Source of the DNA: Gammaproteobacteria bacterium
GTDB taxonomy: Bacteria > Pseudomonadota > Gammaproteobacteria > JABDGN01
Assembly: GCA_016763565.1 (NCBI GenBank)
Contig: JAESTO010000082.1
Coordinates: 1 to 21,404, forward strand
Reading direction: 5' to 3'
Length of the DNA stretch: 21,404 bases
In this document: positions 314-21,300 of the stretch, piece by piece
Layout of the letters: each line of letters opens with the position of its first letter
Position numbering within the stretch: position 1 is the first letter of the stretch
Translations under genes and position numbers: made by a program
Notes under the pieces: generated by a model
What the model saw: the letters and a program-made list of their open reading frames with translations, nothing else
What the model was told of the DNA's origin: nothing
Databases searched by the model: none

Positions 314-3300
314 GCAGCGGCTGAGCAGCGCAATCCAGTTGTTGACAAAAAGCCCACGAACACTAAGACGACGAACGCGCCAGCATCAGCGACGGAGCAC
401 ACTGTTTCACTGGATGCGCACCACTATTATCTGCGCGACCATCATATTCAAGGCGAGTGGATATTACCGGGTGCTGCCCATTTTGAGTATGTGTATCAAG
501 CGTTGTGCGCGCAGGGCACGGATACCAACGACAAAGCGATTGAATTCAGTGATGTGTATTGGTTGAAGCCTTGGCGAGTCGTTCATCAACAAGCTTTACA
601 GATTTGTTTGACGAAACGTCATCCGTCTGCTCAAGGCGATGACTACGCTTATACCGTGAGCGATGATAAGGGCAATGACTACGTGAAAGGGCGTTGTTTG
701 CTGGTAGAAAAAGCGGAGAATGTGAGCTTACCGTATAGCGAACAGACCTTTGAGAAAGTATTAGCCAAAGCGCAGATATACCAAGCCTTGCAAGCGTATG
801 GTATTGGCCATGGTCCGGTGTTTCAAGTGATGGAGACCGTGCAGTTGGGCGCGGGCATGGCGGTAGCGCAGGTGCGCTGGCGACAGCCAAGCGAAGAGAT
901 TGAGGCATTGCGATTCAACCCGTGTTTAATCGACAGTGTATTTCAAGCGGTGACGCACGTGGGCTTACTGCACCAAGGTGATACACAAGTACAGTACGTG
1001 CCTTTTCTTTTGGAGAAGGTGATATTTTACCGTGCGTTGCCAACGAATTGCTTCATCGAAGTGAGAGCGCGTCAGCTAAGCAAGGCCAATTTACAAGCGT
1101 ATGACATGGTGATGTACGACACCGCCCGGCAAGTCATTGCACGCTTTAGTGGCTTTAAGAAAAAAGCGTTGGCCAAGCCAGCGCTTACCCGCGAGACACA
1201 AGCCTTGCATTATTACACGACGCGTTGGATTGACACCTCTGGGCAGGCAAGGCGCGCTTCAAATGGCGTGGTTGTGTGTGTATTACCAGATAAGCCTACT
1301 AAAGCCTTGCTCACCGCCTTACCCACTGCCTGGTTACGGGTTTCGAAAAGTGGCGTGATAAACCGTTCGTTGCAGGGTTACGTGCAAACAGATTACGGTG
1401 ATAGCAAGCGATGGCAAGCGTTGTTTCGTGAGATTCAAGCCGCGCATGGCGCGCTTGATAGCGTTGTTTATTGGTTAGATAAGCACACAAAGCGCGACGA
1501 GGTGATAGACGTTACACCGTTACAGCCAAGCGTAGATTGCTTGGCACTGGTACAAGGGCTCATGCTAACCAAGCCCAAACAATCGATACAGCTGTTAGTG
1601 AATATACGTGAGCAGGCACAAACCGTGCCGCTACATCAGGGCCTAGCAGGCTTTGCGCGGACACTTGCTTATGAGTACCCCAAACTATCGATGCGCGTAC
1701 TGGTGAGTGACGCCGCTAAGCCAGAGGCACGCATTGAGCAGATAAGCGCAGAGCTATTGCTTGAGGCAGCGGCCTTGCGCGTGGTGCGTTATCAGCAAGA
1801 TAAGCGAGGCACTCAACAGGTAGTCCCCTTAGCGTTGCCAGTGATAGCTGAGGCTAAAGAAAGGCCCCATTTTCGTGACGATGGCGTGGTCTTAATTGTG
1901 GGTGGTGCTGGTGGTTTAGGGCGCTTGATTGCCGCCCACCTGGTGCGTCATTCCACCTGCCAGGTGGTGTTGTGGGGTCGAAAAGCAATAACGTCATCCA
2001 TTACTGCTTTTTTGCAACAGCTAAATACCTCGACCATCCAAGCGACTTATGATGCGGTGGATGTCACCGAGGCTAAAGCAGTGAAGCGTGCTATCAAGCA
2101 GCTGAAGAAGCGGCACAAACGGCTTACCGGCGTTATCTACGCGGCTGGGGTCATTGACGATGCGTTTATTTTAAAGAAAACCGCAGCATCGTTTCAGCGA
2201 GTATGGTCAACGAAAGTGTTGGGATGTGTGCATGTTGAGCAGGCGACCTGTAAATACCCCTTAGATTACTTTGTAGCATTTTCCTCGATAGCGAGTTTAA
2301 TGCCCAACCAAGGGCAAGTAGACTATGCGACGGGCAACAGTTTTCTCGATGCGTTTATGGCGCGACGTAACGAGTGGGTGAAGCAAGGCAAGCGCCAAGG
2401 CCGCAGTATCGCGATGAATTGGCCGTTGTGGCAAGACGGTGGCATGCAAGTGAAAGCCGAAGAAGTGGCGCATTTAGACAAGGTGTTTGGCATGAAGCCG
2501 TTGTCGACGGACAAAGGACTGCATGTGTTCACGCAGTTATTGTCGTTATCAGCCGAGCCAGCCTTATTACCGTGTGAGCAGGTCATTCTCATTGATGGCG
2601 ATGCCGATAAAATAGCGAAGCATTTGCATCTTAAGACACATGCCACGCAAGTTCCTCCCTCGAACACAGAACAAACAACCCGAGTATCAACTATGAAGCA
2701 CAACACCACGAAAACACCCGTCAGTGAACAAGCCATCGAGCAGTCACTGCAGAGGTTTGTCCGCGGCTGTGTGGCGTTGACCTTACAGCGGTTATTGACA
2801 GCGTCCGATGACAAGACAGCGCTGCCAGAGCTGGGTGTTGATTCGCAAGGCTTAGTGACCTTAACCGAGCAATTGAACCTGCGTGGAGAATTGACGCTTA
2901 AACCAACAACCTTGTTTGCACATAACACCGTGGCTGCATTAGCCCATCACCTCTTGGCGACAAATAGCGAAGGCATTGTTGAGCGTTTTAAAACGACGTT
3001 GCAAGCAAACCGTGACGAGCCCTATTCGTTACTTGATTTACAGCACTCCGATACCGCGCAAGGCATTTTCCGCAAGACCTTGACCACGGAAGAATTTTAC
3101 ATGCAAGGGCATATTCGCGACGGCCAGTATAACTTGCCGGGCGCCTGTTACGTTGAGATGGCCTTACAAGTGGCCAGGGTCTTGTTTGATGATGCGGCCA
3201 ACGTGTGTTTACACAACACACTATTTTTGCGGCGTTTATTGTCGTATGGCGAAGCGTTGGCTATCGAGTTGCAAGTAAAGCCAGTGGCCGACAAAGGCAG

Positions 3301-6300
3301 CTACACCTACACCATCCATCAGGTGTTGGCTGATGGGCAGCGTCTATTGTGCTCACAAGGCGAACTATCGGCTGCCAAAAACGCGGCCCCGTTACCGGTG
3401 CCGACCCCTGTCGCCGCGTTTATTGCCAGTGGCCAACACGTGAAAGAACACGCGGGCATCGTGGCACAGATGCAAGCAGAAGGCGTTGCCGTATTGCCAG
3501 ATTTTGTGGCTGCCCAAGCGATTCATCTAAAAGCGGGTGAAGCCTTAGGTGAGCTGCGCTTAGGGCGCAGTATTGAAGCGACGGCGGGTGATTTTTCTTT
3601 ACATCCGGCGTTATTAGCGGGTTTTATGCAAACCGCGATCATGAGCTACGGATTTGACTACGGTGGTGCCTTTGAAGATGTGATGCCGATAGGAATAGCT
3701 GACATCACCGTCTGCGAGGCTTTACCCAACCCGTGTTATGCCTATGTGAAACAGCATGTGGGTGGACAGGGGAGTATTTGTAAATTTGATGGTTACTTAT
3801 TTGATAAGGCGGGGCGTGTGTGCGTCGTGATTGACCATTTTTCACTGAAATCACAACAAGCCGTTGTAAAAAAACAAACAGCGTCACCGGTTAGCACTGA
3901 AGCTGCTGCCATGACGACATCCTCGCGCATACCGTTTAGCGATACGGTGGCGTATCTCAAGGGCTTATTGGCTCCGATATTGGGTTATTCACAAGATGAG
4001 CTGGATGACGCCATTGCCTTTGAAGAATATATCAGTAACTCGGTAGTGATAGTTGAAATCAACGCCCATCTTGAACAAGCGTTTGGTGAGTTATCGAAGA
4101 CATTATTTTTTGAGTACGATAACTTGGGTGCTTTAGCGCAGTATTTTGTTGATAACCATCAAGCTGAATTGCAGGTGGTGTTAGGCACACCGAGTGAGGT
4201 GATAGACACGGTCCGTGAGGTTACAAGTTCAGATACGGGATTAACGTTATCACCGCCTGCGGCTTCAGCGGTTTTGCTGGTTGATGTTGTGGTCTATCTC
4301 AAGGCCTTATTAGCGCCCATACTGGGTTATCAACCCGACGAACTGGATGAGGCGAGTGCGTTTGAAGAATACATCAGTAACTCGGTAGTGATAGTTGAAA
4401 TCAACGCCCATCTTGAACAAGCGTTTGGTGAGTTATCGAAGACATTATTTTTTGAGTACGATAATTTGGGTGCTTTAGCGCAGTATTTTGTAGAGAATCA
4501 TCAAGCTGAATTATCAGCGATTGTTGATAAGACTTTATCACCGCCGCCGCGGGTTATATCACCGCCGCCGCAGGCTATATCTTCACCTAGCGAGCCAGCA
4601 CCAGCGCCTATTGAGGCGATATTGCCTGCTGCATCGGCCTCAACTGATACCAAGACAAAGCGTGCCACAAGCGATGACAATGCGATAGCCATTATTGGTT
4701 TAGCGGGTCATTACCCGCAGGCGAGCAACTTAGAGGAATTTTGGCAGAATTTATGTGCTGGCAAAGACAGTGTGACGGAAATTCCCGAAGGGTTATTTGA
4801 GCATCAACGTTATGCGAGCAAGGACAGCCAATCGGGCGGCATTTACAGCCATTGGGGCAGTTTTGTTGACGATGTTGATAAGTTTGATCCGTTGTTTTTT
4901 AATATATCGCCGCGAGAAGCGGAGCTGATAGACCCGCAAGAGCGGTTGTTTTTACAAGTGGCGTATCATGCCTTCGAAGATGCCGGTTACCCGAAATCGA
5001 TGTTATCGACTAAAGGCCTGAAGCAAGTAGGGGTATACGTCGGCGCGATATGGCAACACTTCAGTCATCTTGGCGCAGAGCTTACGGCCCAAGGTCACCA
5101 ACCGATAGCACCGATGAGCTTGTTATACAGCATTGCTAACCGGGTATCGTATTTTATGAATCTCACCGGGCCGAGCATGGCTATTGATACGGCCTGTTCA
5201 TCGTCGTTGACGGCCTTGCACCAAGCGTGTCAGGGATTGCTGTTAGGTGACACACAGATGGCGTTAGTGGGTGGGGTCAACCTATCGTTGAGCACCAGTA
5301 AATACCTCTGGCTATGCCAGAATCAATTTCTGTCAACCGATGGCAAGTGTCGGGCCTTTGGTGAAGGCGGTGATGGTTATGTGCCGGGTGAAGGTATCGG
5401 CGCGGTATTACTCAAACCCTTGTCAACAGCGCAAGCAGACAACGACCGTATTTACGGCGTGATACGGGGCGTCAGCATTAATCACGGTGGCAAAGTGAAC
5501 GGCTATACAGTGCCGAACCCCAATGCACAGCGGGACTTAATCATTGAGACGTTTGAGAAGGCCGGCATTGACCCTAAGAGCATCAGTTATGTGGAAGCGC
5601 ATGGCACGGGGACGAGTTTAGGCGACCCCATCGAAATGACGGGTTTACGTCAAGCGTTTGGGAAGTGGACGGATAAGACGCAGTACTGTGCTATTGGTTC
5701 GATCAAATCGAACCTGGGTCACCTAGAAGCTGCGGCCGGCATGGCAAGCTTAACCAAAGTGTTATTACAGCTGCAGCATAAACAACTGGTACCTTCGTTG
5801 CATGCGGATACGCTCAACCCCAACATCAATTTCACCAAGACACCGTTTACCGTACAGCGTACCCTCAGTGATTGGCACGCGATAGCCGGGTATCCACGAC
5901 GGGCCACGATTAGTTCCTTTGGGGCCGGTGGGGCCAATGCCCATATGGTCGTGGAAGAGACCTCCGTAGACTACGACGCGTCACAACGAGACCGTATGCA
6001 GGCGGCTAAGGCAAAACCATATTACCTGCTGTGTATATCTGCGAAAACGCAAGCCGTGTTGCAACAAAAAGTGGTTGAGTTGGGCGAGTGGTTAGCGCAG
6101 CAACATAAGCGCTTGTCACAGGATGAATATACCCCTGCTTTTTTATCAGCGATGAGTTACACGTTGAATGCGTGTCGCGATCACCTTGATTATCGTTGCG
6201 CCTTGCTGGTGCCATCCCTTGACGAATTAGGGGCGTTATTGGATTATGCGGGTAAACACCTGACAGAAAGTAAAACCAACTATTGTTATGGCGATGCCAG

Positions 6301-9300
6301 CGAACAACCCAAAGAGACGGCATTGTATGAAACTATTTTAGAGGGGCTCCATCAATCGTTGCGTGCACTTGAGACCCAAGAGACCCACCTGTACCACAAA
6401 CAGCTGATGGCTTTAGCGAATCTTTATGTCAAAGGTTATGCGTTGAATTGGACGTTGGTGCATCACGGTGACGCGATGAAAACACTGGCTTTGCCAGCGT
6501 ATCCCTTTGCCAAAGAGCGCTACTGGTTACGCGTGCCTGATGCTAAGACCAAGACGACAGTGCACACGAACGAAGAACACCTGCGCCCACCATCAAGCAC
6601 GCCCTTGGGTGAAAAGAACGTGAGTCAGACAAAGACAGTTGATATCGCCGTGAAAGCCGTGGTGACGGCACCGTCGCTATCGTTAGCGCACATCAGCCTG
6701 GCGCCCAGTGCCCTTGCTATTGAGCAGATTACGGCATGGTTGAGCGAGCAGGTCTGTGAGACCTTGATGTTAAGTCAAGACACCTTCCGTGCGGAGAAAT
6801 CGTTTATTGAACAGGGCATGGATTCAATTTTGGGCATGGAGTTGGTGAGCAAACTGAATCGTGTCTTGCAGATTCATTTAAAAGGCACCGTGTTATTCGA
6901 ACAGACCAGCTTGTTAGCGTTAGCCACGCATTTGCAGCAACATTATGGCACGGAGCTGGCGGCTTATTTGGTACCGGGTGTTGAACAAGCCGTGGAACGG
7001 TTAGCGGTATCCCCTCAGGCCATACCTTTGGCCTGTGATCTTGATAGTGCGCAGGTGACAGAATGGTTGAGTGAGCAAGTCAGCGAGACCTTGATGCTAA
7101 CGCAAGACACCTTCCGTGCGGAGAAATCGTTTATTGAACAGGGCATGGATTCGATTTTGGGAATGGAGTTGGTGAGCAAACTGAATCGTGTCTTGCAGAT
7201 TCATTTAAAAGGCACCGTGTTATTCGAACAGACCGCCTTGTTAGCGTTAGCGACGCATTTGCAGCAACATTATGGCACGGAGCTGGCCGCTTATTTGGCA
7301 CCGGGTGTTGACAACAATGCAGCGGCTATTCAGGCCTGTCAGCTGCGGCCGACAGCGGTGAGCTTGCGTGAGCCTGTGATGCGTGCACCCGTGATGCGTG
7401 CACAGGATAAGAAATTGATTTTATCCTCGGTATCGGCTACAGCGGCGCCGCTGACATCATCGTCAGCATCAACCGAGCCCGATGCTAGTTCCGTGAATGA
7501 TATTGCGATTATCGGCATGGCGGGCAAATTCCCCGATGCTGATAGTGTCGATGCCTTGTGGGAACAACTGACATCGCACGCGTATTGTCTCAAAGACATA
7601 CCGCTCGATCACTGGGACTATCGCCCCCATTACCAACCCGGTAGCGATGTGCCTGGAAAAATCTATGCGAAGACCGGGGGCTTTATCAACGGTATTGATA
7701 AATTTGATGCGGCATTTTTTGATATCTCGCCGCGAGAAGCCAAGTCAATGGACCCACAACTGCGCTTGTTGTTGGAAGTGGCGTGGCAAGGTTTAGAGGA
7801 TGCCGGTTATGCACAGGCCTGGCGTGGGTCGGCCACGGGTGTGTATGTGGGCAATTGTTTTAATGACTATCGCGAGCTAACGTTAGGCAGTGATGCGCAG
7901 GTTGATTACACCTATTTGGGCACCGGTAATGGCAATTCTTCCTTAGCTAACCGTTTAGCTTACTGCTTTGATTTAACCGGCCCAAGTATGATGTTAGACA
8001 CGGCGTGTTCGAGTTCATTGGTGGCCTTACATTTGGCGTGCCAAGCGATACGGCAAGGGGATTGCGCGCAAGCGATAGTCTGTGGCGTGAATGTGAATGT
8101 CAGTCCGAGCCGATACCAAACCTTCTGTGCAATGAAGGCATTTTCAGTGAGTGATACCTTAAATCCCTTTGATGAGCAAGCCGATGGTTATTTGCCGGGC
8201 GAAGGCATAGCCGTCTTAATTCTCAAACCCTTAGCACAAGCGCAAGCCGATGGCGATCACATTCATGGTCTCATCAAAGGTTCCTATGTCAACAGTGGTG
8301 GTAAATCAGCCGGTCCGACGGTTCCCAATATGGAGCAAGAAGAAGCGGTGATGGTCAAAGCGTGGCAAGCGGCCGGCATTACACCCGAGACGCTGTCGTA
8401 TTTTGAAGCCCACGGTACCGGGACGAAATTGGGCGATCCACTGGAAGTCAATGCTATCAAGCGTGCTTTTGGGCAATTTACCGATAAACAACAATTTTGT
8501 GCCTTGGGTACGGTGAAGGCCAATATTGGGCACACGGAAGCCACGGCCGGTTTAGCGGGTATTATTAAAATCTTATTACAAATGCGTCATGCGTGGATAC
8601 CTAAGTTACCGAAATTGCAGACGCTCAATAAGATGATAGAATTGGATAATTCACCGTTATACATTAATCGTGAAGCGATGGCGTGGGACAGACCCGCGAC
8701 CCATCCGCGTCGTGCGGGCGTGAGTTCATTTGGTATTGGTGGCACGTATGCGCATGCGGTGTTAGAAGAAGCCCCCCAACGTGCAGTGCAACAAGGCGTG
8801 ACGAAGCCTTACTATCTCATCACCTTATCAGCGAAGACGGAACAAGCCTTGCAGCAAAAAAGGGTGGATTTATGTGCGTGGTTAGCTGACAAACACACCT
8901 TGGCGCCCGCTGCATTATCAGACATCAGTTATACCTTAAACGTTTGTCGCAGCCATTTTGATTACCGTTGTGCCTTAGTCGTGTCATCGTTCGATGGCTT
9001 GCAAACATCACTGGAAAAAACCCACAAAAACAGCGCGCAAAAACAAACGCATGTCTTTGTGGGTGATGCCAGCCAGCCGCCGGATGATGCGGCGATATAT
9101 GACGAAGTGATGCGTGGGTTATTATCAAAATTGAAGGTGGCCGATTATCAGAATAAGTCACAATACGCTAAGCAGTTACGCGCCTTAGCCAATCTGTATG
9201 TGAAAGGTTACGATGTGGACTGGACCTTATTACACCAAGGTGAAGTGCGGCACACGCTTTCATTACCAACGTACCCGTTTGCCAAAGAAGCGCATTGGTT

Positions 9301-12300
9301 GCAAGCGGCAGCGGTATCGACGCAACCGCTATCCTCAGCGGCATCCTCCTCACCGCTACCTTCACCGGCATCAACGCAAATAACGGAAGCCTCAACACGG
9401 ACAGGGCATTATTTTTTAGATCACCCAGACACGGTAATCAGCCGGAATAAGCAACAGTATACCTATGCAATATCGGTTAAAGATAATTGCTTAATTGGCG
9501 AGCATAAAGAATTTGATGAATATACCATGCCAACGGATGCTCTCTTAGAAATGCTATACAGTGCGGGCCGACAGTACTACGATGACACATCTTTACATTT
9601 GTCCCAGCTATTTATTTTTTCACCGTTGATGGTGCGTGATGAGCAAATCTGTCGTGTTAGTCAGCGCCTCATCTCCCAATTCTCCGGTGAACTCTCGTGC
9701 AGTATCAGCAGCACGCATCCTATCACCCAAGACGCACAACTGCATATCAAAGGGATGTTGCGTCAACACACGACCCCAGCAGCATTATTGACAGCGCATC
9801 ATCGATTTAAGGAGACCAGTGCCAGTGAGACCTTGGTATCGCTGTATCAATCGGAACAGCCTTTATGGGTAGGACCTTTTTTCCGCAGTGTTAAAGCGAT
9901 ACGTTTTATTGACAACTGTGTGTTAGCTGAGTTGTGTTTGAGTGAAACGGCTAGACATTATCAGGGGCGATTTTATTTGCACCCTGGGATAGTCAATGGA
10001 CTATTAACGGCTGTGGTGGCTTTGTGCCAGAGACTGGAGGGTGTCGATAACCAACAGACATTTATACCCACGTACATAGAAGATGTGTTTGTTTATGAGG
10101 CATTGGTGGCTGACCATTATAGGGTCTATGTGGAGTCGGTTGCTATTCATGCAGAATTTCAGCGAGTGAACGCTTACATCATCGATGACGATGATCGTAT
10201 TGTTATGCAGTTAATGGGGCTCGATGAGAAAAAAGTCAGCCTGGATAAAATGGCGGCCATAGCCATGAGAACCCAGCCATCCCCGGCTGAATCTGCTACG
10301 CAAGTCACCGATGATGCGAAGCAGATTAGCCGTGAACAGGTGAAAGCGTGGTTGGCGCAACAAATCATCGAGACCTTGATGTCGAGCGAAGCGCAATTTC
10401 GTGAGGATAAATCGTTTGTTGCCCAAGGCATGGATTCGATATTAGGCATGGAGTTGGTGAGTAAGTTAAATCGCTCACTCAACATTGATTTAAAAGGCAC
10501 CGTATTGTTTGAATACACGGACCTGCCTGCATTAACACAGTATTTACAGGCACATTATCAACCCGCTTTGCTGGCGTATTTAATGCCTGCGTCACAAGCT
10601 GTTGCGCCATCGCCAAAGGATAAGGCCGTACCCCATCAACCCGCAGCAGGGCGTGCGAAACACACTTTACAATCCGTCACATCCCGTGCATCAACGCCCT
10701 TGGTTCCTCCTGCGCAACACAAATTAGCCTTAAGCCAGATTGCGATGCGCGCTGCAAACAATACCGCGACACCCGCCGCTGCGGACGAGCCGTTGACACA
10801 ACGCACCGCAACAAACGCACCCTTGGCGCAAGACGCTCATGATATAGCGATTGTGGGCATGGCCGGTCGGTTTGCCGATTCTGCGACACTCGATGCGCTA
10901 TGGACGCATATCAAGTCAGGCGATTATTTACTGAAGGACGTTCCCCAAAATCATTGGGATTATCGGCCTTACTACCAACCCGGTAGCCATGAAGCCGGAA
11001 AGATTTATGCAAAAACCGGTGGCTTTCTTGATGAGGTTGATTGTTTTGATGCGGCATTTTTTGATATATCACCACGCGAAGCCGAGAGCATGGACCCACA
11101 ATTGCGCTTGTTGTTGGAAGTGGTCTGGCACGGTCTGGAGGATGCGGGCATGGCCAACCAGTGGCGAGGCAGTGCGACCGGTGTGTATGTTGCCAATTGT
11201 TTCCATGATTACCGTGGTGTTATTTTTGAGGACAAACAATCGGTTGATTATGTTTATGCGAGCATAGGCAATGGCAATTCGACGTTAGCGAATCGTGTGG
11301 CGTACAGTTTTGATTTAAAGGGTCCGAGTATGACGCTAGACACCGCATGCTCGAGCTCCTTGGTTGCGTTACATTTAGCGTGTCAAGCGATACGACAAGG
11401 TGATTGCGAGCAAGCGATAGTGTGCGGTGTGAATATTAATGTGAATGCCAATAAGTACCAAACGTTTTGTGCGATAGAAGCCCTTTCCTTGACCGATGAA
11501 CTTAACCCCTTTGATGAACAAGCCGATGGTTATTTACCGGGTGAAGGTGTGGCGGTCTTACTCATCAAGCCCTTAACGCACGCGATGAAGGCGGGTGATT
11601 CAGTGCATGGCATTATCAAAGGTTCGCATGTTAACAGTGGTGGGCACTCAGCTGGGCCAACCATTCCCAATGTTGACCAAGAAGAAGCGGTGATAGTCAA
11701 AGCTTGGGAAGCTTCCGGTATTGACCCTGAGACCATTTCCTATTTTGAAGCACACGGTACCGGTACGAAGTTGGGCGATCCACTGGAAGTGAATGCGATA
11801 AAACGTGCCTTTGGACGTTTTACCGACAAACAACAATTCTGTGCGTTGGGTACGGTGAAGGCGAATATTGGCCATACGGAGGCCACTGCAGGCCTTGCAG
11901 GTGTGATCAAAGTATTGTTGCAAATGCGCCATGACTGTTTGCCAGGCTTACCGAAATTACAGACGCTCAATAAGATGATCGTGTTAGCAGATTCGCCATT
12001 ATATATTCCACGAGAATCACAAGTTTGGCCACGACAAGGCAATCATCCGCACCGTGCTGTGGTGAGTTCATTTGGCATGGGCGGCACCTATGCGCATGTG
12101 GTACTGGAAGCAACACCCGACAGTTATTTACACTCACAGCAAATAAAAGCGCAATCAGCGCGCATCAAACCCTATTATCTGATAGCGCTTTCAGCAAAGA
12201 CGCAAGCCTCACTTAAGCGCAGTATCACGCATCTGCATACATGGTTGTGTGAAAAGACAGCGCAATGGACGGTTGAGCAAGCCAATCGTATTATTTTACC

Positions 12301-15300
12301 GTCGCTTAGCTATACACTCAATGCTTGTCGTGCGCATTTCAACTACCGTTGCACGCTAGTGGTTTCTTCGTTAGCGCATTTGCAAGATAGTTTGGAAAAA
12401 TTTGAGGGGAGTGATACGGGCGTATTGCCTTCCACATTGACACATGTGTTTATGGGCGATGCGTGTAACACACCTGATGATGCTGCGATATATAAACAAG
12501 TCCTGGCAACCAGTGTAGAGAAATTACAGCAATTTTCTGCCGATGCCGATGTGCAACAATACCAAGATACGTTGCTGGCTTTAGCCAATTTATACAGTAA
12601 AGGCTACGTGTTAGATTGGGCATTATTGCATCGGGATGAAGCTTGTCAGAAAATAGCGTTACCGGCATACGCCTTTGCCAAAGAGCGATATTGGGTAGCC
12701 ACTACGCCAGCGGTGATTGCGACTGACCCCACCGCCTTACATCCGTTGCTAACTTGCAACGTGTCAACGCTCAATGCGCCATGTTTCACGAAACGATTGA
12801 CCGGACAAGAATTTTATTTAACCGATCATGTGATTCAAGGTCATAAAATGTTACCCGGTGTGGCTTATTTGGAAATGGCGCGTGTGGCCGGTAATGTTGC
12901 GCATTTGACACAAACGGTCTTTCAGTTATGTGATGTGACATGGATGCACCCATGCATTGTTGAACAGGACCCGGTGCAGCTATCCGTTGCACTGACACCT
13001 ACAGCGGCCGAGGCTGATGCGGTGACATTTGCCATCAGTAGCGCAGGTGAGCGTGTGGATACCACCGGTGGTGCAACGTCCATCGTTCACGCGCAAGGCA
13101 CCTTGGTTTATGGCGCGCACACGGCACAAAGTCTGCCGTCACGCCTGGAGGTAGTGAATGCACGCAAAGCCTTATCAGAGACGCTCAGTGGTGATAGGCT
13201 CTATGCTCAGCTTGCTACCTTGGGCTACGATTATGGTCAAAGCTTTCAGTGCTTGCAATGGTTACAATACGACAGTGAACAAGGTAAAGGCGTCGGCTAT
13301 GTGGTGTTAAGTGAGGTACTACGCCAGGCGGCCGATCGCCACGATTATGGGTTACATCCGGCGTTAGTCAATAGTTGTTTGCATGCCGTGTTGGGCATGG
13401 CCATGGGGCCGTCTCATGCGCCAGCCGATGCTGCTGCATTATTGGTGCCTTTTTCCGTGGATGTTGTCAGTGTGTACGGTGCCTTAACCGATGCCTGTTA
13501 TGTGCTGGTCGACCTCACGCACCACGCTGTCGATGAAATAAGCGCTCACGTACAAATTACCGATGAAACGGGTCAAGTATTGGTTGATTTACAGAAGGTT
13601 AGCGCGCGTTTATTGACGACAGTGAATAAGGTAGCGCCGCTGGCAACGCCTGATTCATTGCCAGCGCCTGCGGTGAAACCACGCAGCGGTGCGGATGCGA
13701 CATTGTGCTACTACGTACCGCAGTGGCAAGCGCAAGACTTACCGACCAACCCATCGAACCAAGACGCTATCAACGGTTTATTAATCTTGACGAATCAGCA
13801 ACGCGATGTTGAGCAGTTACAAGCGCAACTGTCAACGACACAGATACCCCTCATTCAAGTCAGTGCGGGTAAAGACTATAAAAAACTTAAACACGACCAT
13901 TACCAAGTGCGATTGTCCGTTGCCGATGACTATCGGCGTTTGTGGCACGATTTGCTGAAAGACAACCGCACTATTAGTCATGTATTACATGTTTGGGATG
14001 TTTATCATAAGGGAAGCAGCAAGTTATCCACGGTATTAGCGTACGCGCTTGAGAGTGTCTGGTTACTCACACAAGCCAGTATTGTCGCTAAAATAAGCGC
14101 ATTGCGGCTGTTATCTATTTGTTCGAATGATAGAGAGGATATCCATCAAGTTGTTGATACCGCCTTAATCGGATTATGCAGAAGTATTCGCCAAGAACAA
14201 CCGCGTTATTGTTACAGTTTACTGCAAGTTGATACACGTAATTGGGGTGTTAATCCTGCCTCTCACCTGTTTGAGCACGCGATTGCTGAACTCACCGTAC
14301 AAGCTGATGCAGCGGAACATGTTTCGTATAAAGATAATAAACGCCATGTTTTACGCTTCATCTTAGCAAAGGACGTGCCCGTGTCTGCCATATCACATAG
14401 CCGGCTACCCACCACCACATCATTAAGCCTCGCGTCGGGTGATGTGATAGTGCTCACCGGTGGGCTGGGTGGCTTAGGCTACCTCTTCGCGCAGTATGTG
14501 GCGCAGCAGTATCATGCAAAATTGGTGTTGACCGGGCGCAGTGCCTTGGACACCGCGAAGCAAGCGAAGCTGGTGCAGCTTGAGCAACTCGGCGCTGACG
14601 TGTTGTATATCCCGTGCGATATATCTGACAGAAACGGAGTTGAGCAACTCATCGCTAAAGCCAAAGCCCACTTTACTCGCATTGATGGCGTCATTCACTG
14701 CGCTGGCGTATTGCATGATAGTTTACTCAGCCATAAGACCCAACAAGAATTTGCAGCCGTATTAGCGCCGAAAATATCGGGCACCGTGCATTTAGATACC
14801 GTGTTGAAGCACGATCCACTCAAGTATTTTGTGTTGTTTTCCTCACTGGCCAGCGTCTTGGGTAATGTGGGTCAAGCCGACTATGCCAGTGCGAATGCGT
14901 TCATGGACAGTTTTGCACAGTGGCGTCAGCATCAACGGGAACAAGGCCAACGTCAAGGAAAAACCCTCAGTATTAGTTGGCCGTTATGGCGTGAGGGTGG
15001 TATGCAGTTAGACGAAGCGACCCAAACGTGGTTGGCAGATACCTTGGGTATGCAGCCATTACCAACGGCGCAAGGGTTACACGCCTTTGAAACGGTGTTG
15101 GCGATGGGCGATAGCGATGCCGTATCGCCTGCCGCCTTTTCACACGTTGTGGTAGGGTACGGTGATGCGACGGTGATACAGCGTGTCTTAACCACCACAC
15201 CCACGATTGACGCTGCTAATGCGAGTGAGCAAGCAAAGCTGCCCATAGCCGCGTCGCTTGAATCGGCACGTGAGTTAACCGAAGCGATGCAGCAATATCT

Positions 15301-18300
15301 CATGCGCCTTCTGCGCGATGTACTCAAACTCAAGCCACAAAAAATAGGGCTGGACACTCCCTTTGAGCGCTATGGATTGGATTCTGTCTTAGTGGTGCAA
15401 TTAACACGGGTACTGGAAAAAGATTTCGGCGCATTACCCAAGACATTATTTTTTGAATATCAGACGCTAAGTGCCCTCACCACGTATTTTGTGACACAGC
15501 ACACGCAGCCATTGCAGCAGTATTTCTCAAACGGTGCGGCTCAGCGCGAAGCATCGGCCGTTGCCGTCAAAAAAAATCGGCCCGCAGCGGCGTTATCCCT
15601 GCCTTCGCTACGCGCCATTTCATCGCCCGTCGCAAGCCTTGTGACAGAACGTCCCGTAACGCCCACAAGCGAGCACCCTCAACCAAGGCATCACACACCG
15701 AATACGGCCGTTGAGCCCATAGCGATTATTGGTTTAGCGGGCTATTATCCGCAAGCAAAGAATCTGGATGAATTTTGGAAAAACCTGACAGAAGGGAAAG
15801 ACAGTATTGTAGAAATACCAGCGGACCATTGGGATCACCGTGACTATTTCAGTCAAGATAAAAATCAAACCGGCAAGAGCTACAGCAAGTGGGGAAGCTT
15901 TGTGGATGATTTTGATAAGTTCGATCCCCTGTTTTTTAATATCTCGCCGCGAGAAGCGGAGTTGATGGACCCACAAGAACGTTTGTTTCTGGAAGTGAGT
16001 TGGCACTGTTTGGAAGATGCCGGTTATACCGCTGACAGCTTAGGCAATGGTTATGCTGCGTCCTCAGTGGGTACGTTTGTGGGTGTAATGTATGGGTCGT
16101 ATCAATTGTATACCTCATCGGCGAGTGCCGGTTTGCCAAGTTCATCCTATGCCTCAATCGCCAACCGTGTCTCGTCTTATTTGAACCTGCATGGTCCGAG
16201 CATGGCCATCGATACCATGTGTTCGTCATCGTTGACCAGTATCCATTTGGCCTGTGAAGCGATACAACACGGGCATTGTCACATGGCCCTAGCGGGCGGC
16301 GTGAACATCAGTTCGCACCCGAGCAAATACCAATTTTTAAGTCAAGGGAAGTTTTTATCGAGTGAAGGGCATTGTAAGAGTTTTGGAGAAGGTGGCGATG
16401 GTTACGTACCAGGCGAAGGTGTAGGAGCCGTTTTGCTTAAGCCGCTGTCCAAAGCCATCGCCGATAACGACCATATTTACGGTGTTATCAAGGGTAGCAG
16501 TATTAACCATGGCGGCAAAGCGAATGGTTATACGGTGCCTAACCCGGTGGCACAAGGCGAGGTGATAGTCGAGGCCTGTAAACGCGCTAATATTACGCCT
16601 GACAGTCTCAGTTATATTGAATGCCATGGCACGGGTACCAGCTTGGGCGATCCGATAGAGATACGCGGCTTAAGCCGGGCTTTTGGCGAAACACAACGTG
16701 CGTCAAGCGATAAGAAGCTGGCTATCGGTTCGGTAAAAAGCAATATGGGCCATTTGGAATCTGCGGCAGGTATTGTGGCACTGACGAAAGTCTTATTGCA
16801 ACTGCAGCACAAACAATTGGTGCCCTCCATTCATGCCGAGACACTCAATCCCCATATTGATTTTGCGCAGACACCGTTTGTCGTGCAACGAGAACTGAGT
16901 GAATGGCCGTCGATAGGGGATGAACCCCGTCGTGCTGGCATCAGTTCATTTGGTGCCGGTGGCAGTAATGCGCACATGATAATCGAAGAATATGTGCCGA
17001 GCGCGGTTGTTAAAACCGCCGTGGTCAAGCCGTATTACCTCATTGCCTTATCTGCAAAAATACCCTCATCTTTAACGCAAAAAATGGTTGAATTGTCTGC
17101 GTGGTTGATACAACAAAAAAAATTGTCGTTAGAGGATGCAAACAAAGCGGTGTCACTGGCCTCTATCAGCTATACATTAAATGCTTGTCGTAGTCATTTT
17201 GACTATCGATGTGCCTTGGTTGTGTCCTCCCTCGATGAATTGCAACAACGGCTTGAAAGCCTAGCGACACATACCTCGCGCCAACACAGCAACGTATTTT
17301 TTGGGGATGCAACACACGCAGCAGCGGATAATACCGTACACGACAAGACATTCGACGCGTTAATCAAAGAAAGTGCAACGCTGGATAAACAAGATGATGC
17401 GCACTATCAAAAAAACAGAGCAGCGCTCGCGCGCCTTTATAGCCAGGGTTATGACGGGGATTGGGCCTTACTGCATCAAGATGAACCTCGACAAAAGCTT
17501 TCAATGCCAACGTACCCTTTTGTGAAGAAACGGTATTGGTATGACTCCTATGCACATCAGCAGGGTACGTCAGCACAGCCATCGCCTCACAACGTGAGTC
17601 AGCTCACCTTAAAGACAGGAGTAAACATTATGCAACAACCGTTAGCAACGCCGGGTAAGACCCTATCCATTTATGATGAGCCCTCAACCATTGCAAAAGC
17701 GTATCACAGCGAGGTTGTGAGCTGGGCGTTTAATGAAACAGGTATTGCTGTCATACAATTGCAAGATAAGCACAACCGCAATCAATTATCGGCAGCATTG
17801 GTCAAAGGCATTGAACAGTGTTTTAGGCAAGCGGTCTTGCATCCAGACACCAAAGTGATTTTGTTGATGGGCTATGACGACATATTTTGTATGGGCGGCG
17901 ATAAAGCGAGCCTGGAAAAAGTGGTTGCCGGTGAAATTAACTATACTCAGGTGCCCTTATATCGCTACATGGTGGAATGTCCTTTGCCCATTGTGGTGGC
18001 GATGCAAGGCCATGCCTTTGGCGCGGGGTTAGCCTTTGGTTTATTTGGTGATTTAGTGGTGTTATCGCAGTCCCATATTTATAATGCCAATTTTATGCGC
18101 TATGGTTTTACGCCAGGCATGGGTTCGACGCTGATTGTGCCACACAAGTTAGGCGAATCGTTAGGCAATGAGATGTTGTGGACGGCCTCGGATGTGACGG
18201 GAGAAGAATTGGCGAAACGCGGGGCGAATGTGACGGTGAAGCCGAGCACTGACGTCGTGGCAGAGGCCCTGCGTTTAGCACGTTCGTTAGCAAAAAAATC

Positions 18301-21300
18301 GGTGTTGGCGTTGAAAACGTTTAAACAACATTCAGTCAAGCTGATAGCACAACAGTTGCCTACCGTCATTGCTGATGAGTTGGCAATGCACAGTGAGATA
18401 TTTAGTCAAGACGAAGCGCTAACCAAGGTACACCAACATTTCGATAAATTAGCTGATTTTACTCGTCAAGCTACGCCGGCGACTGTCTCAGTCATCCAAC
18501 TGACGCCACCAACCTTAAAGGTGACGGCCACAAAAGTGACGGCTACGCAGGCCACATCAGCGGTGAACACTGTGCAAGTACCGACATCCAAGCGTGGCCC
18601 CTCCCCACAAGCGGATGAAGCGGCGATATTAAAGCAATTAATTCAGCTGACATCAGAACGCTTGCCCATACCGCTTGAGGAACTATCCATACAGGCTAAA
18701 TTCAACGATTTAGGGATGGACTCCATTGACGGTATAGAATTTATAAGAAGTGTTAATCAAACCTTTCATTTAGTGATGGAAGCGAGCGATTTATACGATT
18801 ACCCGAGCTTGCAAACGTTAAGTCGCTATGTGTGGGAACAAAGGCCTACCCGTACGGTCGATGAAGCAATGGACACGCGCGATACGGAGCTAGATGAGGC
18901 AACGCCTGCGCAACCGATAGCCATGCCTGTACAGGTTGTCGGTGAGGCTGTGGCAGAGCCCACGGCCAAATTGGTTTTGAATGCGGTGGGGAATCACTCG
19001 CATACGCCAAAGGCTATTCCCGATAAAGCAACCGTCACCGTCAACGTGAGCGAGCACATTCCGGTGGTGACGCCGCAGGCGCCTGCTGTTTTATCCGTAG
19101 CAGAAGACATTGCTGTCATTGGCGTATCGTGCCGTTTTCCTGACGCATCAAATAAAGAGGCCTTCTGGAAAAATTTATGTGGCGGTAAAAATAGCATCGT
19201 TGAAGTACCCACTACGCGTTGGCCTGCAGGTTATTATCAAGCAGGTAAGCCTGCTAAAGGGAAAAGTTATAGCAAATGGAGTGGCTTATTGGCCGACATC
19301 GACCAGTTCGATCCTGCCTTTTTTTCAATTTTGCCATTGGAAGCCGAAAGCATGGACCCACAGCAGCGCTTGCTGCTACAAGAGAGCTGGCATGCCTTTG
19401 AAGATGCGGGCTATACCGCCAGTGCGTTATCAGCGCAGCGCTGTGGCGTATTTGTGGGATTGGCTGCCAGTGATTATATGGATTTAGCAGCCGATAAAGA
19501 AGCCCTTAGCGCACAAGCCTTGACGGGCATGGCCGCGTCGATATCGGTCAGTCGTATTGCGTATCATTTGAATTTACGCGGCCCAACGTTAGCGATTGAT
19601 ACCGCGTGTTCAAGTTCTTTAGTGGCGATACATGAAGCGTGTCGTAGTTTACAGACAGGCGATAGCGATATGGCCTTAGCCGGCGGTGTTTACCTTGCTT
19701 GTACACCCAAGATGCATATTATGTGTAGTCAAGCGGGTATGTTAAGCCCCGATGGGCAATGCCATACGTTTGATGCGCGTGCGAATGGTTTTGTGCCGGG
19801 CGAAGGTGTAGGCGTGGTGGTGCTCAAACGATTGACTGAAGCCTTGCGCGATGGTGACAGAGTGTATGCGGTCATAAAAGGCAGTGGCGTCAATCAAGAT
19901 GGCGCAACGAATGGTATTACGGCACCCAGTGTACAGTCACAAACGGCCTTGATAAAACAGGTGTATGCTAAAAACGGTATATCGAGGGAGGCAATCAGTT
20001 ATATTGAGACCCATGGTACGGGTACGCAACTGGGCGACCCGATAGAAGTGAAAGCGTTAAGCCAGGTGTTTGGTGCTGGTAGTGAAACGGCATGTGCCTT
20101 GGGCTCAGTGAAGACGAATATTGGTCATTTACTGATGGCATCAGGTATGGCGAGTTTTATAAAAACGGTGTTGTGCTTGCATCATAAACAACTGGTACCG
20201 AGTTTACATTATGAAAATACCAATGCACATATTCAATTCAAGGGCAGTCCATTTTATGTCAACACGGCGTTAAAGCCCTGGACACGTAGCGATAATCAGA
20301 TACGATTAGCCGCGGTGAGTTCATTTGGTTTAAGTGGCACGAATGCGCATATGGTACTAGAAGAAAGTCCTGCGCAAGTGATGCCAACACAAGCGCAGGT
20401 TAAACCTTATTATCTGATTGCTTTATCTGCGAAGACTAACGTGGCATTGCAACAAAAAATAGTTGATTTGCACGAAGAGTTAATTGAAGGCAATACCTTA
20501 TCGCAGCCCCTTGCCTCTATTAGCTATACCTTAAACGTTTGTCGTGACCATTTCACGCACCGTTGTGGGCTAGTGGTGTCTTCAGTCGATGAACTGCGCG
20601 ACTTGTTAGAAAAAATGCACGTTAAGGGTCAGCAGAAACAAGCCAATGTATTTGTTGGTTATACGAAAAAAGCACCCGATGATATAGCAATATATAAACA
20701 AGTGTTAGCGATCAGCTTAGAAAAATTGCAGCAGTTTTCTGAAAATAAAGATGCTCAAGAATATCAAGATACGTTACTTGCCTTGGCGAATCTCTACGCT
20801 AAGGGTTACGACTTGGATTGGGGATTATTATACCAAGGTGAAGCACAGCAGAAAATATTGATGCCAACCTATCCGTTCGCTAAACAGTGTTATTGGTTGC
20901 CAGAAGAGAGGCATCCTTGTCACGTCATATCAAATACAGGAGTAATGAGTATGTTACATCCTTTACTTGACAGTAATGTATCGACATTGAGTGAGCAATG
21001 TTTTAAGAAAACTTTATTGGGCAGTGAATTTTATTCGGCTGATCATGCGATACAAGGTAATAAGGTTTTGCCAGGTGTCGCTTATATTGAGATGGTTAGA
21101 ATGGCAGGAGAACTTGCTAGCAAGCAAGCCAGGGTGACCACCATTAAACAACTTGTTTGGCAGCAACCTGTCATCGTTACTGACGTAGCAGTGTCCCTGG
21201 TGACAGCGCTACATCCTGAAGAAAATCATGTGGCATTTGAAATATACAGTGAAACAGATACACCGGAAGAACGTGTGCTACACGCACAAGGTCGTTTGTT

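What the first reader, a model, noticed from the sequence alone, without database searches (positions are those of the whole stretch)
17708..18430. ECH2 decarboxylase built into the megasynthase, between KS4 and ACP8
Seen: a full crotonase domain with ECH2-type segments (YGFTPGMG, VPHKLG) fused in frame between the KS linker and an ACP. Knowledge: beta-branching ECH2 enzymes are mostly free-standing in trans-AT pathways, with in-line versions known in only some pathways. Inference: this module installs a beta-branch, with the decarboxylation step tied to one ACP.
Basis: partly seen in the sequence, partly recalled or inferred. Interest (0 to 1): 0.7.

Follow-up and report, generated by a model that had tools for sequence, protein, structure and literature searches.

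The report
In-line ECH2 decarboxylase in polyketide synthase
A bacterial assembly line for a complex natural product carries, fused into the chain, an enzyme that should finish a one-carbon side branch; it is a known kind of enzyme, but of a separate group whose carrier domains lack the usual marker residue.

Summary
Window 17723-18427 is a complete crotonase domain, in frame between KS4 and ACP8 of one 7134-residue open trans-AT PKS frame. It is an ECH2-type decarboxylase: best PDB matches by sequence and fold are PksI and CurF ECH2, NCBIfam's cut-off is passed, the catalytic His is kept. The CurF lysine is absent, as in PksI and in 130 of 130 other in-line ECH2 domains examined. In-line ECH2 is common (131 domains in 121 megasynthases). 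The window's domain falls with KS-ECH2-ACP modules, outside free-standing ECH2 and a second in-line type (KS-ech-ech-ECH2-ACP). This group appears to include leinamycin-family domains, which make an exo-beta-methylene. Its acceptor ACPs lack the Trp flag (0 of 57 distinct ACPs have it; 116 of 132 in the other type) but mostly share Arg at Ser+8 with Asn at Ser+11 (44 of 57; 10 of 382 other ACPs). Of the window's eight ACPs only ACP8 has both. Nine of KS5's ten nearest distinct KSs follow ECH2 modules. Relatives carry HMGS; three of seven lack a free-standing ECH2. The window's own cassette could not be checked. Verdict: new member of a known kind; the two-group pattern is the interesting part.

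The parts
10817..15514 (+). Upstream module KS3-DH-KR-ACP7 (predicted to deliver an alpha,beta-unsaturated chain to KS4)
   Evidence: the same KS-DH-KR-ACP module precedes the ECH2 module in the closest relative, P0013 (G002 contig C95)
15692..16981 (+). KS4, ketosynthase of the ECH2 module (active site DTMCSSS at 16211)
17723..18427 (+). In-line ECH2 (3-methylglutaconyl-type decarboxylase) domain
18389..18391 (+). Codon of the predicted catalytic His (equivalent of PksI His230 / CurF His240)
   Evidence: His in 130 of 130 other in-line ECH2 domains; role of His230 from PMC7501309
18617..18853 (+). ACP8, predicted beta-branch acceptor: GMDSIDGIEFIRSVN, Phe instead of Trp at Ser+6, Arg at Ser+8, Asn at Ser+11
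19085..20356 (+). KS5, next ketosynthase; nine of its ten nearest distinct KSs follow ECH2 modules

Best explanation
KS4 extends the chain by a malonyl unit and leaves a beta-keto thioester on ACP8, since the module has no KR or DH. Enzymes encoded outside the window (donor ACP, decarboxylating KS, HMG synthase, ECH1) add a two-carbon unit to that ketone and dehydrate it to a 3-methylglutaconyl-type thioester. The fused ECH2 domain then decarboxylates it in cis, using its single His and an oxyanion hole. The product is a beta-branch, more likely an exo-beta-methylene than an endo-beta-methyl, which KS5 accepts. Shown here by sequence: the ECH2 identity, kept catalytic residues, module anatomy, an acceptor-type ACP8 and a post-branch-type KS5. 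Inferred: the cassette in trans, decarboxylation in cis, and the regiochemistry (from leinamycin-family module 5).
For: ECH2 by profile, sequence and fold (the best 18 PDB chains are all PksI or CurF ECH2). His kept, and the Gly66 position kept. In the tree of 158 domains it lies with in-line ECH2s of the same KS-ECH2-ACP layout, apart from the free-standing and multi-type ECH2s (support 100) and from five ECH1s. Relatives with this layout have HMGS on the same contig in 4 of 7 genomes; the stretches fetched also hold an ECH1-like gene. ACP8 has Arg+8/Asn+11, alone among the window's 8 ACPs, and its 15 nearest ACPs in the sampled ACP tree are all from this layout. KS5: of its 10 nearest distinct KSs, six follow this layout, three follow other ECH2 modules, one starts a protein. 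Largimycin LrgJ module 5 (PMC9396626, passages read) and weishanmycin module 5 (PMC7618002, passages read) have an in-line ECH2 and make an exo-beta-methylene.
Against: No cassette gene was seen for this organism: the window's assembly is not held and G001 has no HMGS. ACP8 lacks the Trp flag. Asn at the PksI Lys80 position is rare (1 of 130 others), though PksI K80A keeps activity (PMC7501309). In the KS tree KS5 has a supported partner only in P0013 (0.994); the next fork up holds more than 90 tips, so its placement rests on nearest neighbours. HMGS sequences do not follow the ECH2 groups. In the passages that I saw, the in-line ECH2 of LrgJ was not itself mutated.
Confidence: 0.82

Rival explanations
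1. [quoted passage not shown] (This overlaps the best explanation, which only favours exo.)
For: The active-site residues at the PksI Phe81, Phe136 and Phe234 positions are Tyr, Phe, Phe, close to PksI. Lasonolide's in-line ECH2 of module 10 is predicted to give an endo-methyl (PMC9600693, passages).
Against: The members of this in-line type with known chemistry (leinamycin family) give exo-methylene. Lasonolide's domains have the truncated-ECH-plus-ECH2 layout, i.e. the other in-line type, and that paper calls exo-methylene the common outcome even there.
Confidence: 0.28
2. The domain has lost decarboxylase activity and acts as a scaffold or gatekeeper, like the ECH-Q domain of aurantinin Art21.
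For: No lysine at the CurF Lys86, PksI Lys80 or PksI Lys232 positions (Val, Asn, Glu). Art21-ECH shows that ECH2-like domains can be repurposed (PMC11425284, sections 2.1 and 2.4 read).
Against: Art21 has Gln in place of the His; the window keeps the His. PksI K80A and K232A have activity equivalent to wild type (PMC7501309, passages). 130 of 130 other in-line ECH2 domains also lack Lys86.
Confidence: 0.06
3. The module is not HMGS-dependent: the domain is an enoyl isomerase or hydratase acting on the chain directly.
For: ACP8 lacks the Trp flag; no cassette seen for this organism; ordinary crotonases are isomerases or hydratases.
Against: The module has no KR or DH to make an enoyl on ACP8. 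The domain is far from ordinary crotonases in score. Clusters such as Vallitalea G008:C20 and Lachnotalea G004:C1 combine this layout with HMGS and an ECH1-like gene, have no ACP with Trp at Ser+6 among those whose motif could be read, and no free-standing ECH2 was found in the genome.
Confidence: 0.05

Closest known systems
In-line ECH2 (mECH) of leinamycin-family module 5 (largimycin LrgJ, weishanmycin)
   Same: KS-ECH2-ACP layout with a single ECH2 and an ACP without Trp flag; domains that I take to be of this family (by the PF09924 and PF01212 domains of their proteins) fall in the same group
   Different: Only 40% and 37% identity to two such domains (P0098, P0103); a different assembly line. 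ACP8 has Phe at Ser+6, while theirs have Ile, Leu or Val (P0104 misread there)
PksI (bacillaene, free-standing ECH2)
   Same: Best PDB match, E 3e-55; fold E 2.7e-21, TM-score 0.91; catalytic His
   Different: Free-standing, and on the other side of the main branch of the tree
CurF ECH2 (curacin)
   Same: ECH2 fold and His; fused to a PKS
   Different: Uses a catalytic Lys (Lys86 by my recall; PMC7501309 says 'an active site lysine') that the window lacks; groups with a cyanobacterial N-terminal ECH2 on the other side of the main branch
ECHa-ECHb in-line pairs (lasonolide LasH/LasO, onnamide OnnB) and kalimantacin mECH
   Same: ECH2 fused into the megasynthase
   Different: The KS-ech-ech-ECH2 type is one clade nested among free-standing ECH2; that the named pathways belong to it is inferred from their described layout. 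In P. batumici the in-line ECH2 is followed directly by a KS and scores 261.7 bits with profile A1, against 334-364 for the window's type

Membership tests
ECH2 decarboxylase of HMGS (beta-branching) cassettes | Sequence and fold of PksI / CurF ECH2 rather than ECH1 or ordinary enoyl-CoA hydratase | tested here: met
ECH2 decarboxylase of HMGS (beta-branching) cassettes | Catalytic His (PksI His230 / CurF His240) | tested here: met
   window codon 18389-18391
ECH2 decarboxylase of HMGS (beta-branching) cassettes | Oxyanion-hole positions (PksI Gly66, Gly108) | tested here: met
   Gly at 66; Ala at 108, as in 86 of 130 other in-line ECH2 domains (the backbone amides form the hole, PMC7501309)
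ECH2 decarboxylase of HMGS (beta-branching) cassettes | HMGS, donor ACP, decarboxylating KS and ECH1 in the same genome | not testable with these tools
   own assembly not held; G001 lacks nearly all of the PKS
CurF-type ECH2 | Catalytic Lys86 | tested here: not met
   Val at that position
Trp-flag acceptor ACP (GxDSxxxxxW) | Trp at Ser+6 | tested here: not met
   Phe in ACP8
Single in-line ECH2 module (leinamycin-family module 5 type) | KS, one ECH2 about 190-310 residues after the KS, then ACP(s) without Trp; domain in the in-line-only group | tested here: met
   gap 248 residues, one ACP
ECH2 decarboxylase of HMGS (beta-branching) cassettes | Decarboxylation of 3-methylglutaconyl-ACP | not testable with these tools
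   needs an assay

The most novel reading that the evidence does not exclude
In-line ECH2 exists as two separate groups. The one in the window is, in the domains sampled, exclusively in-line, lies outside the free-standing ECH2s, and travels as a fixed ECH2-ACP-KS unit with its own type of beta-branch acceptor ACP. That ACP does not carry the Trp flag but mostly keeps Arg at Ser+8 and Asn at Ser+11. These two residues, rather than the Trp, may be a general mark of beta-branch acceptor ACPs, including the Trp-less leinamycin module-8 ACPs.
Probability: 0.55. Interest if true: 0.5.

Novelty: new member of a known kind. Interest (0 to 1): 0.36.

Why it matters
How an HMGS cassette finds the right ACP among many is an open question, and the Trp flag is known to fail in some pathways. 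A second class of acceptor ACPs, tied to an in-cis decarboxylase and sharing Arg+8/Asn+11 with the Trp-flag class, gives a testable recognition hypothesis and perhaps a better rule for predicting beta-branches from sequence. For this window it predicts one beta-branch, most likely an exo-methylene, next to a double bond set by the preceding DH-KR module.

Tried and rejected
Looked for the rest of the cluster: the window's assembly is not held. G001 shares 5 kb of the PKS at 99%; of its four hits to the KS model only that contig is PKS-sized; it has no HMGS and no ECH2 (best 98 bits). G001 looks alphaproteobacterial from one SDR protein (a 96% hit without a name, named hits about 60-62%), and its G+C (0.45-0.50 in seven loci) fits the window's 0.492; but one 5 kb contig could be misbinned, so the host is unproven.

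The first genome-contig scan with the window's own protein found nothing; the second, with a 19-row profile, gave 80 kept loci of 505.

Lysine loss as a sign of inactivity: rejected, because PksI lysine mutants stay active and 130 of 130 other in-line domains lack Lys86.

That the single in-line type might not depend on HMGS (prompted by the missing Trp flag): rejected after and the largimycin and weishanmycin papers.

That each ECH2 group has its own HMGS lineage: not supported. Three of five cluster HMGSs fall in one clade and two in the other (26 of 30 HMGS loci used, four distant ones left out; further HMGS matches had no locus).

Random sampling of 398 genomes of the phylum for an out-of-sample test gave a single ECH2 hit at E 1e-65, too few to use. 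Free-standing relatives by protein search: only 7 hits.

Limits of the counts: the ECH2 tree used 29 of 87 multi-type domains, and free-standing ones only from the 80 loci plus 3 proteins. The KS tree used 378 of 501 KSs. Three modules with an ACP before, or none after, the ECH2 were set aside, and one single-type ACP (P0104) was misread there. Multi-type includes domains with a KS-to-ECH2 gap over 400 residues even where no second ech was detected. ACPs that begin the next protein in G004, G005 and G008 were labelled single-type by hand. One of 584 ACPs was dropped and 12 duplicates removed in the recount. Aquimarina RZ0 was in the KS and ACP sets twice (P0078 and G007) until that recount. 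The Arg+8/Asn+11 pair was picked after looking at all positions from -10 to +13, not named beforehand, and has had no independent test.
Full report
WHAT IS THERE. The window is one open reading frame of 7134 residues, open at both ends. Pfam finds ketosynthase, DH-like, KR and ACP domains and no acyltransferase domain, so it is a trans-AT polyketide synthase. It holds five KS and eight ACP domains. The order is DH-KR-ACP1-DH-ACP2-ACP3-KS1-ACP4-ACP5-KS2-(weak DH)-ACP6-KS3-DH-KR-ACP7-KS4-ECH-ACP8-KS5-(start of a DH). The crotonase domain spans residues 5908-6142, window 17723-18427.

IT IS ECH2. The NCBIfam model PRK07110, named polyketide synthase, gives 263.9 bits against a cut-off of 215; the next families are hydrolases and enoyl-CoA hydratases far below theirs. 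In the PDB by sequence, PksI (3e-55) and CurF ECH2 (4e-47) stand far ahead of other crotonases (1.9e-18). The AlphaFold2 model (19-row alignment, mean pLDDT 88.2) has PksI and CurF ECH2 as its best 18 PDB chains, E 2.7e-21 to 4.9e-17; the next is the isomerase PaaG at 1.3e-13.

ACTIVE SITE. The His of PksI (230) and CurF (240) is kept, as in 130 of 130 other in-line ECH2 domains; the Gly66 position is Gly (120 of 130 others); the Gly108 position is Ala, as in 86 of 130. The CurF Lys86 position is Val; the 130 others have Ile, Leu, Val or Met. At the PksI Lys80 position the window has Asn, seen in 1 of 130. In PksI the K80A and K232A mutants have activity equivalent to wild type and catalysis depends on His230 (PMC7501309, passages read). 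So the window's domain should be active by the PksI mechanism.

IN-LINE ECH2 IS COMMON AND OF TWO KINDS. One search with the window's region found 251 proteins of megasynthase length, of which the best 120 were listed. With the window, these hold 131 ECH2-like domains in 121 proteins. Setting aside three oddly placed ones, 41 modules (window included) have one ECH2 187-308 residues after the KS ('single'), and 87 have one or two further crotonase-like domains before it or a long gap ('multi'). In a tree of 158 domains, free-standing and multi-type ECH2, with PksI and CurF (106 rows), are split off by a branch of support 100 (SH-aLRT); on the other side lie the 45 single-type domains, the window, one oddly placed in-line domain (P0012) and the five ECH1s. 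The multi type is one clade (99) nested among the free-standing ones. The quick tree left the 47 single-type rows unresolved towards ECH1; holding them together as one clade gave a higher likelihood (by 37.8) and was not rejected (AU p 0.89). ECH1 branches are long, so the root is uncertain. The window's nearest relative is P0013, 60% identical, from a Planctomycetota MAG (L011), where the same KS-DH-KR-ACP module precedes KS-ECH2-ACP.

THE ACCEPTOR ACP. Multi-type modules carry the Trp flag at Ser+6 in 116 of 132 distinct ACPs; single-type in 0 of 57; other ACPs of the same proteins and clusters in 38 of 382 (before removing duplicates 118 of 134, 0 of 59, 38 of 390). Arg at Ser+8 together with Asn at Ser+11 is found in 125 of 132, 44 of 57 and 10 of 382. 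Thirteen of the 57 single-type ACPs lack the pair. Of the ten 'others', two (P0113, P0115) sit just before an ECH2, and five (P0091, P0094, P0098, P0107, P0117) I take to be leinamycin-type module-8 ACPs, by the PF09924 and PF01212 domains of their proteins (DUF and SH of the family; my recall). Module 8 is known to install a beta-branch and to lack the Trp flag (PMC7618002, passages read). ACP8 reads GMDSIDGIEFIRSVN and is the only one of the window's eight ACPs with Arg+8 and Asn+11; its 15 nearest ACPs in a sampled tree are all single-type. In the full ACP tree, 57 of 59 single-type ACPs fall in one split of 60 rows, support 0.925, while the multi-type split has no support. Papers already record Trp-less acceptors: virginiamycin, with Phe at this place (PMC10006238, passages), ripostatin and leinamycin. 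I did not find the link between single in-line ECH2 and Trp-less ACPs, nor the Arg+8/Asn+11 pair, in what I saw from searches; subscription papers, among them the main reviews and the paper that defined the Trp motif, were not held.

THE NEXT KS. Ketosynthases of trans-AT lines group by the chain they accept (established knowledge). In a 378-tip KS tree the ten nearest to KS5 are seven that follow single-type and three labelled as following multi-type modules (two of these are P0113 and P0115, with ACPs before the ECH2). One of the seven is a duplicate; among distinct sequences the ten are six, three and one other, the first KS of P0012. As controls, KSs that follow single-type modules have on average 8.0 such neighbours of ten, other KSs 0.78 (duplicates not removed). 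Seven 'other' KSs had seven or more; at least two of these start a protein just after a terminal ECH2 (G004, G008), i.e. they were mislabelled. KS5 has clade support only with P0013 (0.994); the next fork up holds more than 90 tips.

THE CASSETTE. HMGS (PF08540) was found in 27 of 27 genomes searched that carry a relative ECH2, against 4 of 14 control genomes. Of seven genomes with single-type modules (G002-G008), HMGS lies on the same contig in four: Lachnotalea glycerini, Brevibacillus dissolubilis, Aquimarina sp. RZ0 and a Vallitalea MAG. In the other three it is on another contig. In the stretches fetched, an ECH1-like gene lies close to HMGS in five of five (G003, G004, G005, G007, G008); a free-standing KS was seen in four (not G005), and a small free ACP in G003, G004 and G008 and, further off, in G007. 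In Vallitalea (three single-type modules), Lachnotalea (one) and the NORP100 MAG (two) no free-standing ECH2 was found at E 1e-15; the other four genomes have one each. In the Vallitalea and Lachnotalea clusters no ACP whose motif could be read has Trp at Ser+6 (a few were misread), so Trp-less ACPs are the likely acceptors there. HMGS sequences do not split by ECH2 type.

CHEMISTRY. Largimycin LrgJ module 5 carries an in-line ECH2; deleting lrgKLM1 left the C9 exo-methylene in place, and mutants in the HMGS gene lrgM2 and the ECH1 gene lrgF point to HMGS, ECH1 and, by proposal, the in-line ECH2 as its makers (PMC9396626, passages). Weishanmycin module 5 likewise is said to give an exo-beta-methylene through its in-cis ECH2. 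I therefore favour an exo-beta-methylene here. This step is by analogy across about 40% identity.

WHAT IS MISSING. The window's assembly is not held; G001 holds a 5058-base contig of this PKS at 99% identity, and no other PKS-sized KS was found in it. No statement about the presence or absence of the cassette in this organism is possible.

VERDICT. A real, probably active in-line ECH2; a new member of a known kind. The wider pattern, two in-line groups with two acceptor-ACP types, is the part worth following.

Noticed in passing
window 6722-7285: ACP4 and ACP5 are near-identical tandem ACPs; in G001 contig C197 (99% identical) one stretch aligns to both, so that contig seems to hold one copy fewer (assembly collapse or real variation).
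   Followed up: partly
window 3041-3871: A DH-like domain lies after ACP1 with no KS between, followed by tandem ACPs; it keeps HxxxGxxxxP (HIRDGQYNLP) but reads HPALLAGFMQ where a DH has Asp. It may be a pyran synthase-like domain (my recall of that motif, not tested).
   Followed up: no
window 3944-4513: Tandem ACP2/ACP3 read ISNSVVIVEI: Asn replaces the usual Asp before the phosphopantetheine Ser, and the Gly is missing, in both copies.
   Followed up: no
G002 (Planctomycetota OFTM357; L011, L078, L163-L166): One MAG holds ten ECH2 domains (one single in-line, eight in other long frames, one free-standing) while a single HMGS gene was found: one cassette may serve many assembly lines.
   Followed up: partly
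L034 (Pseudomonas batumici): The in-line ECH2 of what I take to be the kalimantacin PKS is followed directly by a KS (what precedes it is not in the locus). P0113 and P0115 have ACPs before the ECH2 and a KS after it. This may be a third arrangement.
   Followed up: partly
382 distinct ACPs outside in-line ECH2 modules: Trp at Ser+6 occurs in 38 of 382 of these ACPs, while Arg+8/Asn+11 occurs in 10, so the Trp alone is the less specific mark in this set.
   Followed up: no
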